Shown here: one piece after another, positions 10,202-21,215 of the stretch
Position numbering within the stretch: the first letter of the stretch is position 1
Layout of the letters: the number at the start of each line of letters is the position of its first letter
Assembly: GCA_011042755.1 (NCBI GenBank)
Contig: DRBY01000117.1
Span: 1 to 25,660 of the forward strand
DNA length: 25,660 nucleotides
From: Thermoproteota archaeon
GTDB taxonomy: Archaea; Thermoproteota; Korarchaeia; Korarchaeales; Korarchaeaceae
Direction: 5' to 3'
Notes under the pieces: generated by a model
The model's input: the letters and a program-made list of their open reading frames with translations, nothing else
Told to the model about the DNA's origin: nothing
Databases searched by the model: none
Position numbers and translations under genes: made by a program

Positions 10202-11275
10202 ATGAGCGGGGCGCTAGGGAAGTTTATCGAAATCCATCGCCCGCCAATTGAGGAGGAGATCGCGAGATTCTTGGAGGACGTAATCGAGGAAGCCCCCAGC
10301 GCCAGGGTTCGCGAGTACTACGAGAATCTGAGGGAGTACCTGCTGAGGGGTGGGAAGAGGCTAAGACCTATCTCCATGATAGCTACCTACGAGGGATTCG
10401 GCGGGCAGGTCGACGCCAAGATCTACAGGGCTTCGATATCAGTGGAATTACTCCACGCGTCGTCGCTCATTCACGATGACATCATGGATGAGAGTCCAAC
10501 TAGGAGGGGAGGGCCGGCATTTCATGTTCTAGGCGAGGAGTGGTTCTCCCACCTAGACGTGAGCAGGGTGCCTCACAACGTTGGCATTTCCGTGGGCATC
10601 CTCGGCGGCGATAGTCTGCTCGGTCTCGGCTTGGAGGCCTTGTACTCTGCTGGATTTGCGTCAGATCGCGCCGATCTAGCGGCCGCGGAGTACGTCAAGG
10701 CCTACAGAAGGCTCATAGAAGGCCAGTTGATGGACATTTACCTGAGCTGCAAGGAGGAGCTGCCGACCGAGGATGAGGTCCTACAGATGCTCTCGCTAAA
10801 GACGGGGGCGCTATTTGCAGCCTCCCTAAAAATGGGTGCAATGCTTGCCGAAGCACCAGCAAGCGCCGTGGCCGCTCTAGAGAGCTATGGCCTGAAGGTA
10901 GGCGTGGCCTTCCAGATAAGAGACGACATACTCGGGCTATTTGGAGACCCAAAGATCACAGGAAAGCCGGCAGACTCCGACGTTAAAGAGGGTAAGCGCA
11001 CCCTCCTGATCATCAAGGCCTTAGGCACGTGCTCAGGGGAGGCTAGGAGGAAGGCCCTATCTATACTCGGGAACCCCAACGCCTCTGACGAGGATGTCGA
11101 GTTCGTCAGAGAACTCGTGAGAGACACAGGTTCCCTAGACTACGCGGAGAGCAAAGCAATAGAGCTAATAAATGACGCCAAGAGAGCGCTAAAGGAGCTG
11201 GAGGGTATTGCTAGGAGCGAGCTCATAGAGCTACTCGACGAGCTGGCGGAGGCTTTGGTCTTCAGGAATCGTTAA
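10202..11275 (+). CDS. Polyprenyl diphosphate synthase (GGPP synthase family, possibly longer-chain)
   Basis: 357 residues, all-helical trans-prenyltransferase that condenses isopentenyl diphosphate onto allylic diphosphates. In archaea this feeds ether-lipid or quinone synthesis. Motifs: GGKRLRP at 50-56, first aspartate-rich motif HDDIMDE at 91-97 (D92, D93, D96), LIEGQLMDI at 171-179, KTGALFAAS at 200-208, and second motif IRDDILGLFGD at 239-249. The residue five positions before the first motif, which limits chain length in short-chain enzymes and is usually Phe or Tyr in GGPP synthases, is Ser87 here, with Ser88 and Ala86 beside it. That suggests a product longer than C20, but this is inference. 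ATG start at 10202. The TAA stop lies inside a possible TATA box for the downstream RNA. Confidence 0.9.
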   Translation: MSGALGKFIEIHRPPIEEEIARFLEDVIEEAPSARVREYYENLREYLLRGGKRLRPISMIATYEGFGGQVDAKIYRASISVELLHASSLIHDDIMDESPTRRGGPAFHVLGEEWFSHLDVSRVPHNVGISVGILGGDSLLGLGLEALYSAGFASDRADLAAAEYVKAYRRLIEGQLMDIYLSCKEELPTEDEVLQMLSLKTGALFAASLKMGAMLAEAPASAVAALESYGLKVGVAFQIRDDILGLFGDPKITGKPADSDVKEGKRTLLIIKALGTCSGEARRKALSILGNPNASDEDVEFVRELVRDTGSLDYAESKAIELINDAKRALKELEGIARSELIELLDELAEALVFRNR

Positions 11276-11278
11276 ATC
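11271..11278 (+). promoter_or_regulatory. Possible TATA box for the RNA upstream of dnaG
   Basis: GTTAAATC contains the stop codon of the prenyl synthase gene and is centred about 26 bp before the first base (11301) of a 9-bp closing stem, as expected if that base is the transcript start. A second AT-rich element, TGATTTTATT at 11291-11300, could serve instead with a start near 11322. Confidence 0.4.
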
Positions 11279-11300: not shown

Positions 11301-11380
11301 GCGCCTGCCACTGCATGACCCCGGGCGAGGGAGGACGGCGTGGGCCGACCTTTGAGCCCGCGGGATTAGTTGGCAGGCGC
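11301..11380 (+). ncRNA. Structured RNA with a canonical K-turn (H/ACA-like guide RNA candidate)
   Basis: An 80-nt hairpin can be folded by hand. A 9-bp closing stem (GCGCCTGCC 11301-11309 with GGCAGGCGC 11372-11380) is followed by an asymmetric internal loop (9 nt left, 310-318; 7 nt right, 365-371). Next is an 8-bp upper stem (CCCCGGGC 319-326 with 356-364, one bulged C at 361), and then a textbook K-turn: GA at 327-328 opposite UUU bulge 351-353 and GA 354-355, with GG/CC beyond. It is capped by a CGGC/GCCG stem with a GUGG loop. Lower stem, pocket, upper stem and K-turn is the plan of archaeal H/ACA pseudouridine guides bound by L7Ae. The weak point is the 3' side: the expected ACA box 16 nt below the pocket reads TCAACC. 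RNA structure is confident; the H/ACA label is tentative. Confidence 0.55.
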
Positions 11381-11421
11381 TCAACCTCACGACGATGTTG
11401 AGTTGTTTGAATCGATTTGTT

Positions 11422-11466
11422 TCTCGAGGTAAGTCAGGCTGCGCGTTAGCGGGCTTACCTCAGAGG
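11422..11466 (+). other. Long hairpin immediately upstream of dnaG
   Basis: GAGGTAAG (11426-11433) pairs perfectly with CTTACCTC (11454-11461). The stem extends by TCTC (11422-11425) with GAGG (11463-11466) past one bulged A, giving about 12 bp, with a short inner CGC/GCG stem and GUUA loop. It ends 6-11 nt before the dnaG start region (GAGGTGATG, 11472-11480). It could fold in the dnaG leader and affect translation, or stabilise the 3' end of the upstream RNA. No role is shown. Confidence 0.5.
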
Positions 11467-11474
11467 GTTTAGAG

Positions 11475-12752
11475 GTGATGTTAAGCTTGAGGAATTCGCC
11501 AGGTTGGGAGGCTAAGTCTCACAACAGGAATAGGGATGCTGAGCACCACCCGAAGTACCTGATTCACTTGGATATAGTTGTCAACGGCCATGTAGATGAC
11601 AGCGACGTCATAGGGGCCCTCTTTGGACAGCTAGAGGGGTTGATAGGACCGGAACTGGAACTGAGAGAACTTCAGAGAACTGGAAAGATAGGGAGAATTC
11701 AAGTGCACCTCAGGAACGAGGGAGGAAAGACCAGGGGACTTATTCAGGTAGGCTGCAGCCTCGACAAGGCTCGGACTGCCATCATAGCCGCCGCCATGGA
11801 GAGCGTCGATAGGGTCGGCCCCTACACGGCGAAGGTAAAGCTTCGAAAGATAACCGACCAGAGAGAAGAGAAGAGGAGGTTTATAGCCAAGAGAGCGGTC
11901 GAGATCTTGAGAGAATGGCGAAGCCAGGCGGCCGAGTCCTCTAGGGACTTGCTGGATAAGATCCTGAGGGAAGCGTCTCGGGAGGAGGTGATCCTCTACG
12001 GCCCAGAGAAGCTGCCGGCTGGCCCCGGAGTCGACGAGTCAGAAGAACTCATCGTGGTCGAGGGGAGGGCCGACGTTGTAAACATGCTTCGATACGGGTG
12101 GACAAACGTCATCTCAGTTGGAGGCGCCGTAGAGAGGGTGCCTGACACAGTCATAAAACTGATATCGCAGAAGGAAGCCATTGCATTCGTCGACGGTGAC
12201 AGAGGCGGAGAGATGGTCCTAAGGGCCCTGCTAGAACAAACCGATGTCGACTACGTGGCCAGGGCGCCTCCCGGGAAGGGAGTGCAGGATCTAACCGCGA
12301 AGGAGATAAGGAAAGCTCTCGAATCTGCTGTTTCAGCAGAAGAAGAGAGGCAGAGGATGGGTATAAAGAAGGTCGCGGTGGGAGCGCGGCAAGCAGTTCC
12401 TGCCCTCGGTGAGACGCTTGAGTCAGCAGTGACTCGTCATGCGAGATCAGAGGTTCAGGGGTGGGAGCAGAGGATCCCTGCTAATCTCCGCGAGTGGCTC
12501 AAGGAAGCCATATCCTCTGGAAAGGCCATCCTATTGTCTGAGGACCTCACCAAAGTCAAAGAAGTGAGGGTGCCCGATCTGTATGACGAATTGAGTTCCA
12601 CGCAGGGGGCCAAGTACCTGGTTTACGACGGTAACGTTACGCAGAGAATAGTAGACAAGGCTCACCTCGCGGGGATCAAGGTCATCGTTGGCAGGCGGAC
12701 TTACGACCTGAGCAGGATACCGGTAGGCGTCAAGGTATTCACGCTAGAGTAA
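11475..12752 (+). CDS. dnaG: Archaeal DnaG primase-like protein (exosome-associated)
   Basis: 425 residues. Archaeal DnaG has a bacterial-primase TOPRIM core and is known as a stable subunit of the archaeal exosome, with primase activity reported in Sulfolobus. The N-terminal domain starts at residue 27 (KYLIHLDIVVNGHVDDSDVI), then GALFGQLEGLIG at 47-58 and LRELQRTGKIGRIQV. The TOPRIM domain has the catalytic Glu196 in VVEGRAD and Asp240/Asp242 in FVDGDRGG, with APPGKGVQDLTAKEI afterwards. The first 26 residues (hydrophilic, His/Asn-rich) are extra compared with the family, which normally starts near KYLIH. GTG 11475 and ATG 11478 compete; GAGGTG is the ribosome-binding site, favouring the ATG. 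The Pelota gene follows after 18-27 bp. Confidence 0.95.
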   Translation: MMLSLRNSPGWEAKSHNRNRDAEHHPKYLIHLDIVVNGHVDDSDVIGALFGQLEGLIGPELELRELQRTGKIGRIQVHLRNEGGKTRGLIQVGCSLDKARTAIIAAAMESVDRVGPYTAKVKLRKITDQREEKRRFIAKRAVEILREWRSQAAESSRDLLDKILREASREEVILYGPEKLPAGPGVDESEELIVVEGRADVVNMLRYGWTNVISVGGAVERVPDTVIKLISQKEAIAFVDGDRGGEMVLRALLEQTDVDYVARAPPGKGVQDLTAKEIRKALESAVSAEEERQRMGIKKVAVGARQAVPALGETLESAVTRHARSEVQGWEQRIPANLREWLKEAISSGKAILLSEDLTKVKEVRVPDLYDELSSTQGAKYLVYDGNVTQRIVDKAHLAGIKVIVGRRTYDLSRIPVGVKVFTLE

Positions 12753-21086: not shown

Positions 21087-21215
21087 GGGGGCTTAGCAGC
21101 TCCTGCGTTTCCCGGGCCCTTGCGGAGCCCAGTACTCCACAGGACGTGGCCGGGCTTAACTTCCGGGTTCGGAATGAGTCCGGGTGTGTCCCCGGCCACT
21201 ATGGCCGCTCGCCCC
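21087..21215 (-). rRNA. rrf: 5S ribosomal RNA
   Basis: The minus strand reads as an archaeal 5S rRNA: after GGGGC come GGCCATAGTGGCCGGGGACA, CACCCGGACTCATTCCGAAC, CCGGAAGTTAAGCCCGGCCA, CGTCCTGTGGAGTACTGGGC and AACGCAGGAGCTGCTAAGCC. The conserved loop (CCGAACCCGGAAGTTAAGCC) is unmistakable. Terminal helix I pairs GGGGC (21215-21211) with GCCCC (21091-21087); ends are accurate to a few bases. Length is about 129 nt. It stands alone, without 16S or 23S, as is common in Thermoproteota. A TATA element centred at 21241 is 26 bp upstream, the expected spacing. Confidence 0.96.

What the first reader, a model, noticed from the sequence alone, without database searches (positions are those of the whole stretch)
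11301..11380. Undescribed K-turn RNA between a prenyl synthase gene and dnaG
A hand fold gives a 9-bp closing stem, an asymmetric pocket, an 8-bp upper stem with one bulged base, and a canonical K-turn (GA on one strand; UUU bulge then GA on the other) topped by a tetraloop stem. This is the architecture of an L7Ae-bound archaeal H/ACA guide. A TATA-like GTTAAATC overlapping the upstream stop codon is 26 bp from the first stem base. The expected ACA box is not clean (TCAACC), so it may be a variant guide, an mRNA-leader K-turn used for L7Ae control of dnaG, or a new RNA.
Basis: partly seen in the sequence, partly recalled or inferred. Interest (0 to 1): 0.72.

Follow-up and report, generated by a model that had tools for sequence, protein, structure and literature searches.

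The report
H/ACA-type RNA leading archaeal dnaG
An 80-base folded RNA built like an archaeal pseudouridine-guide RNA sits directly in front of the dnaG gene in nearly all sampled genomes of one korarchaeal class, but its guide pocket fits no conserved ribosomal RNA site found here, so what it modifies or controls is an open, testable question.

Summary
The element is real. Window 11301-11380 folds as drawn (z -5.99). A covariance model finds it in 25 of 26 genomes of the class and 25 of 29 of the phylum; the class's one miss has no DnaG match. Compensatory changes occur at 14 of 24 pairs on a structure-free alignment of 20 copies and 17 of 24 on a model-fitted one of 26. The kink turn is supported by an invariant U-GA (26 of 26) and a covarying C-stem. 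ACA follows the lower stem in 24 of 26; UCA only in the window and L057. It meets the tested structural features of archaeal H/ACA RNAs. It precedes dnaG on the same strand in 26 of 26, with a TATA-like box 26-33 nt before the stem in 24 of 26 and no T5 run before dnaG.

Oddities: a near-invariant cap, and a pocket whose best conserved 16S/23S match is below the average of relabelled guides. Best reading: an H/ACA RNA of unknown target that is also the dnaG leader. Protein binding, guide activity and dnaG control are untested.

The parts
11271..11278 (+). TATA-like box GTTAAATC, overlapping the stop codon of the prenyl synthase gene
   Evidence: Sequence; best TATA-like 8-mer starts -26 to -33 from the stem in 24 of 26 copies (hand-made weights, no shuffle control)
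11301..11309 (+). Lower stem, 5' strand
   Evidence: 7 of 9 pairs with a compensatory change, 99.1% of cells paired; 5 of 9 on the structure-free alignment
11310..11318 (+). 5' arm of the internal loop (pocket); UGA-proximal bases conserved, the two bases before AUGA free
   Evidence: Column conservation
11319..11326 (+). Upper (GA) stem, 5' strand
   Evidence: 7 of 9 model pairs with a compensatory change
11327..11330 (+). Kink turn, short strand (GA) and C-stem (GG)
   Evidence: A invariant in 26 of 26; C-stem pair G-C 12, A-U 9, G-U 4 of 25 distinct rows
11331..11348 (+). Apical cap: GAGGA, short stem, GUGG loop, A
   Evidence: Nearly invariant in 26 copies; matches with fewer than 2 mismatches occur only at this locus in 29 genomes
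11349..11355 (+). C-stem (CC) and kink-turn long strand: bulge UUU, then GA
   Evidence: Bulge bases 1 and 2 vary, base 3 is U and GA is invariant in 26 of 26
11356..11364 (+). Upper (GA) stem, 3' strand, C11361 bulged
11365..11371 (+). 3' arm of the pocket (AUUAGUU)
   Evidence: AYUAGU conserved in most copies; shortened in L060 and L062
11372..11380 (+). Lower stem, 3' strand
11381..11383 (+). Box position: UCA here, ACA in 24 of 26 copies
11475..12752 (+). dnaG (archaeal DnaG, exosome subunit), directly downstream
   Evidence: NCBIfam NF003108, 415.9 bits, cut-off 300; downstream of the RNA on the same strand in 26 of 26 copies

Best explanation
It is an H/ACA-class RNA of korarchaeal archaea. 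It appears to be transcribed from its own TATA promoter, starting about at the base of its lower stem and running on into dnaG. L7Ae should bind the kink turn and Cbf5 the pocket and ACA box, so that an H/ACA ribonucleoprotein forms on, or is cut from, the dnaG leader. Its pocket most likely directs pseudouridylation of an RNA other than a conserved site of 16S or 23S rRNA, and the unbroken link with dnaG, whose product is an RNA-binding exosome subunit, suggests that assembly or processing of the particle also affects dnaG output. Shown: structure, covariation, strand, box, promoter-like box position, linkage, absence of a conserved rRNA match in my scan. Inferred: protein binding, transcript ends, guide activity, effect on dnaG.
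For: Compensatory changes at 14 of 24 pairs (structure-free alignment, 20 copies) and 17 of 24 (model-fitted, 26 copies), against 1-4 and 2-8 for slid structures. Kink-turn signature and C-stem covariation. ACA at a fixed place in 24 of 26. Spacing of 16 nt from pocket to box and 8 pairs plus 2 GA layers, within published ranges. Cbf5 above the curated cut-off in 27 of 29 genomes. Upstream of dnaG on the same strand in 26 of 26 although the gene before it differs. No T5 run between box and dnaG in 26 copies. No conserved rRNA site above relabelled guides.
Against: No target was found at all, and the rRNA scan had no known guide as positive control. Only 4 bases of the 5' arm next to the stem are conserved, short for a guide. 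No transcript data. L064 has a weaker fold (z -2.32, 4 of 200 shuffles as good). The window itself has UCA instead of ACA.
Confidence: 0.5

Rival explanations
1. A cis-acting dnaG leader that keeps the H/ACA shape but guides nothing: L7Ae with or without Cbf5, or DnaG and the exosome, bind it and adjust dnaG translation or mRNA stability.
For: Constant place in front of dnaG in 26 of 26; near-invariant cap; no rRNA target; DnaG binds RNA in other archaea (abstract of PMC4227792); L7Ae controls its own mRNA through a leader kink turn (abstract of PMC6298567; passages of PMC5539422).
Against: The ACA box at fixed spacing and the pocket would not be needed for L7Ae binding alone. The fold is very stable by prediction, unlike the L7Ae leader, which is unfolded without protein (abstract). 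The ribosome-site-like GGAGG lies outside the fold in the Korarchaeum-type copies.
Confidence: 0.27
2. An ordinary H/ACA guide for rRNA or tRNA whose target my scan missed, for example because of bulged pairing, another register, or a site not conserved as U.
For: All structural features are those of ordinary guides; most known targets of such guides are in rRNA.
Against: Best conserved columns score 14.05 (LSU) and 14.5 (SSU), against a mean of 15.2 and 15.5 for the best of 40 relabelled guide sets and 19.25 for a match to the arm cores alone. tRNA genes of G005: best 15.25. The free bases in the 5' arm are unlike a guide to a conserved site.
Confidence: 0.15
3. A separate class of structured RNA that only looks like H/ACA, with the cap and stem-proximal loop bases as the working part.
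For: The cap and stem-proximal pocket bases are the most conserved unpaired parts besides the box; no Rfam family reaches its cut-off.
Against: Kink turn, pocket, stem lengths and ACA box at the right place would be a large coincidence.
Confidence: 0.07

Closest known systems
Archaeal single-hairpin H/ACA sRNAs (Pyrococcus, Archaeoglobus; Pyrobaculum sR201/sR202)
   Same: One hairpin, lower stem, pocket, GA stem of about 10 layers, kink turn, ACA box 14-16 nt from the pocket (compared with PMC4652768 sections 3 and 16, and PMC7991803 section 4)
   Different: Near-invariant cap above the kink turn; fixed in front of dnaG; no conserved rRNA target found; only the stem-proximal pocket bases conserved
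Pyrobac-1 RNA, Rfam RF01722 (Pyrobaculum)
   Same: Weak alignment over the upper hairpin and kink turn
   Different: 14.6 bits against a cut-off of 40, E 4.3; that model has no lower stem; pocket letters differ
L7Ae-bound kink turn in the l7ae mRNA leader (PMC5539422, PMC6298567)
   Same: A kink turn in the leader of an mRNA for an RNA-related protein
   Different: Those leaders are unfolded without protein and hide the ribosome site when bound (abstract); this is a stable full H/ACA fold upstream of the site, by prediction

Membership tests
Archaeal H/ACA RNA | Hairpin with lower stem, internal loop and upper stem | tested here: met
   Compensatory changes in lower and upper stems
Archaeal H/ACA RNA | Kink turn or K-loop above the pocket | tested here: met
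   U-GA and partner A in 26 of 26, variable bulge bases 1-2, C-stem covariation
Archaeal H/ACA RNA | ANA box directly 3' of the lower stem | tested here: met
   ACA in 24 of 26 copies; UCA in the window and L057, so not met in the window's own letters
Archaeal H/ACA RNA | 14-16 nt from pocket to box | tested here: met
   16 nt in the window (7 + 9); range
Archaeal H/ACA RNA | Complementary target with a uridine in the middle | tested here: inconclusive
   No conserved 16S/23S site above relabelled guides, none convincing in G005 tRNAs or the window 5S; SRP RNA, RNase P RNA and most mRNAs not scanned
Archaeal H/ACA RNA | Host has Cbf5 | tested here: met
   27 of 29 genomes above the cut-off; G006 only a weak match (29.1 bits) and G024 a fragment (59.1 bits). 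The window's own genome is not held
Archaeal H/ACA RNA | Binds L7Ae, Cbf5, Nop10, Gar1 and makes pseudouridine | not testable with these tools
   Needs biochemistry
Pyrobac-1 (RF01722) | Reaches the family's gathering score of 40 | tested here: not met
   14.6 bits
L7Ae-type autoregulatory leader kink turn | Unfolded without L7Ae; ribosome site covered on binding | tested here: inconclusive
   Predicted very stable fold, box to start region outside the fold; prediction only, no probing

The most novel reading that the evidence does not exclude
The dnaG leader is itself a working H/ACA particle site: Cbf5 and L7Ae assemble on the nascent dnaG mRNA, and the invariant cap is bound by DnaG or the exosome, so that the pseudouridine machine and the exosome subunit control each other. 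This would be an H/ACA element used as a cis-acting sensor, with any guide role secondary.
Probability: 0.15. Interest if true: 0.82.

Novelty: new variant of a known kind. Interest (0 to 1): 0.56.

Why it matters
This RNA is held in front of dnaG through a whole class of korarchaeal genomes, with an unusually invariant cap and no conserved rRNA target found. If borne out, it gives a concrete case for asking whether archaeal H/ACA particles have non-ribosomal targets or double as mRNA leaders, and it links the pseudouridine machine with the gene for an exosome subunit.

Tried and rejected
Rfam: in the window only the 5S reaches a cut-off. Pyrobac-1 is weak. The 8 relatives given to one search gave a tRNA in L064 and two weak matches away from this RNA.

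Targets: one search read 9 of its 11 rRNA loci on the wrong strand, because genome-search loci are not turned to the match; superseded. The best 23S site (9 on both arms in 6 of 6 genomes) needs the two arms in different registers and was dropped. The final rRNA scan used 11 LSU and 9 SSU loci; L033 and L035 (partial SSU of G007 and G001) and the small pieces L036-L039 were left out, and one of the 9 (L034) is partial. rRNA loci carry flanks up to 1500 nt, so non-rRNA columns were scanned too. The null is 40 relabelled guide sets (relabelling changes base make-up); no positive control. The tRNA scan used only G005 and had no null.

A score of 24.75 in a flank of locus L097, on the antisense strand of an ORF, is chance: 22 of 25 shuffled guides reach it in the same 189,086 bases. 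A recurring pairing about 170-300 nt upstream of the RNA lies antisense to what I read by eye as a ribosomal protein gene (name recalled, no call); ARAGORN found no tRNA in the 10 loci given to it. Rejected. Other hits fall at different places in different loci.

Complementarity of the cap to G005 rRNA: none of 8 nt or more. A second kink turn inside the cap was considered; columns 42-44 and 53-55 do not decide it. The second blastn hit in G020 (L022) matches query positions 27-63 only and was left out of the alignment. L065 is the antisense match of the L042 copy. The three genomes outside the class have dnaG; their loci give no model match below E 0.44, filters off, and I saw no such hairpin in the 200-nt folds.

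Full report
What is there. On this one sequence the minimum-energy fold pairs GGAGG with CCUUU in the kink region. Relatives favour the kink turn.

Host and relatives. No genome is held for the window. DnaG led to two contigs at 83% identity titled Thermoproteota archaeon; the same spacer there carries the RNA almost unchanged: 4 of 88 columns differ among the three, while the flanks have diverged. Where sources name the closest DnaG relatives, the names are Korarchaeota, Korarchaeum, Methanodesulfokora or Thermoproteota archaeon (most rows have no name). Genome G005 has a contig of 1,590,757 bases, the length of the contig behind the protein named Candidatus Korarchaeum cryptofilum. So the host is korarchaeal, by inference. 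blastn found the RNA in 19 of 25 genomes of the order. A covariance model built on 20 copies found it in 25 of 26 genomes of the class and 25 of 29 of the phylum. The one miss in the class, G021, gives no DnaG match either. The other three genomes have dnaG but no such RNA.

Structure. On the MAFFT alignment of 20 copies (19 distinct), 94.6% of 446 cells pair and 14 of 24 pairs have a compensatory change, against 1-4 for slid structures. On 26 copies (25 distinct) fitted to the model the figures are 95.9% of 585 cells and 17 of 24 pairs, against 2-8; this second alignment leans towards the structure. RNAalifold on its own gives the same lower stem and most of the upper stem but, like the single fold, prefers columns 39-40 with 55-56 for the C-stem; there the variable pair shows only G-C and G-U, while the kink-turn register gives G-C, A-U and G-U, so I prefer the kink turn. 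Outside one cap pair, G-U cells number 26 and A-C cells 1, marking the + strand. Five single folds of copies gave z of -5.55, -6.66, -5.80, -4.78 and, for the most distant copy L064, only -2.32.

Kink turn. Bulge positions 1 and 2 vary; the third is U and GA follows in 26 of 26. On the other strand the A is invariant and the base before it is U in 18, G in 7, A in 1. The two-pair C-stem is G-C, then G-C 12, A-U 9, G-U 4 of 25 distinct rows. This fits the description of the archaeal H/ACA kink turn in PMC7991803 (section 4, first part read), save that the second tandem pair is A-U rather than A-G in most copies.

Box and spacing. ACA follows the lower stem in 24 of 26 copies, UCA in the window and L057. 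Pocket to box is 16 nt in the window; published values are 14-16. The window's GA stem has 8 pairs plus two GA pairs, equal to the 10 layers of the solved particles (PMC4652768, section 3 read). Cbf5 scores above the curated cut-off in 27 of 29 genomes; G006 has only a weak match and G024 a fragment.

Place. In the window and all 25 distinct loci the RNA lies upstream of dnaG on the same strand. Of my query proteins, the one matched before it is prenyl synthase on the same strand in 8 (window included), prenyl synthase divergent in 1, UDP-sugar dehydrogenase divergent in 14, and none in 3 (two of these three are cut short by the contig). The DnaG-aligned start lies 7-63 nt after the box in 23 of 26, and 91, 123 and 124 nt after it in the window, L056 and L057. 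The best TATA-like 8-mer starts -26 to -33 from the stem in 24 of 26 and near -45 in L063 and L064. The weights are mine, from memory of the archaeal box; no shuffle control was run, and many copies share a conserved upstream stretch, so they are not independent. The box would put the transcript start about at the stem base. No run of five T lies between box and DnaG-aligned start in 26 copies. RNA and dnaG therefore look like one transcript; no transcript data exist here.

What is unusual. The cap (GAGGA, a short stem, GUGG) is nearly invariant. Allowing 2 mismatches, it occurs in 24 of 29 genomes at this locus; the five further hits all have 2 mismatches, and the reversed control pattern gives 3. 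In the pocket only AUGA beside the stem on the 5' side and AYUAGU on the 3' side are largely held; the bases beyond AUGA are free.

Target. I scored each genome's own guide on its own rRNA, with U-N in the centre and one mismatch allowed per arm, over conserved-U columns of 11 LSU and 9 SSU loci. The best columns score 14.05 and 14.5; the best of each of 40 relabelled guide sets averages 15.2 and 15.5; a match to the conserved arm cores alone would score 19.25. So no conserved rRNA site fits at this sensitivity. The 45 tRNA matches of G005 (30 loci plus 14 stretches for the other 15) give at best 15.25, the window 5S 11.25. A better-scoring flank site in L097 is chance. SRP RNA, RNase P RNA and mRNAs were not scanned beyond these loci.

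How it most likely works. The structural features I could test are those of H/ACA RNAs, so I take it as an H/ACA-class RNA that recruits L7Ae and Cbf5. As transcription seems to start at its base and run into dnaG, the particle would form on the dnaG mRNA or be cut from it. DnaG is an RNA-binding exosome subunit (abstract of PMC4227792), so a link between RNA modification and RNA turnover is plausible, but inferred. Which RNA it modifies, if any, is unknown.

Comparison. L7Ae leader kink turns are unfolded without protein and hide the ribosome site when bound (abstract of PMC6298567; passages of PMC5539422); this RNA is predicted to be stably folded. It is not a Pyrobac-1 member by score (PMC2864571, passages). 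The paper on atypical Pyrobaculum guides is not held and is known to me here through PMC4652768 (sections 3 and 16 and passages) and PMC7991803. Paper searches listed no report of this RNA; they cover only the held open-access library.

Noticed in passing
11426-11433 and 11454-11461: Inverted repeat GAGGTAAG/CTTACCTC, a second possible hairpin between the RNA and dnaG. It is not apparent in L056 and L057.
   Followed up: no
L040-L055, about 4-25 nt before the RNA stem: In the Korarchaeum-type copies a near-palindrome (form CGRCAAGTGWCG) lies between the TATA-like box and the RNA start, with a conserved CGAAGAGATTATATT before it; possibly an operator.
   Followed up: no
G001, G002, G025, G027, G028, G029 and others: Some Cbf5 matches are read across one or two stop codons, and some other genomes give two neighbouring pieces; an intron, as known for some crenarchaeal cbf5 genes (PMC2738675, search listing), or an assembly error could explain it.
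   Followed up: no
21091-21212, - strand: 5S rRNA gene (83.6 bits) between an aminotransferase gene and an isoleucyl-type tRNA synthetase gene.
   Followed up: no
L064:32-144, - strand: A tRNA match over 113 bases, perhaps with an intron, upstream of the RNA in G026.
   Followed up: no
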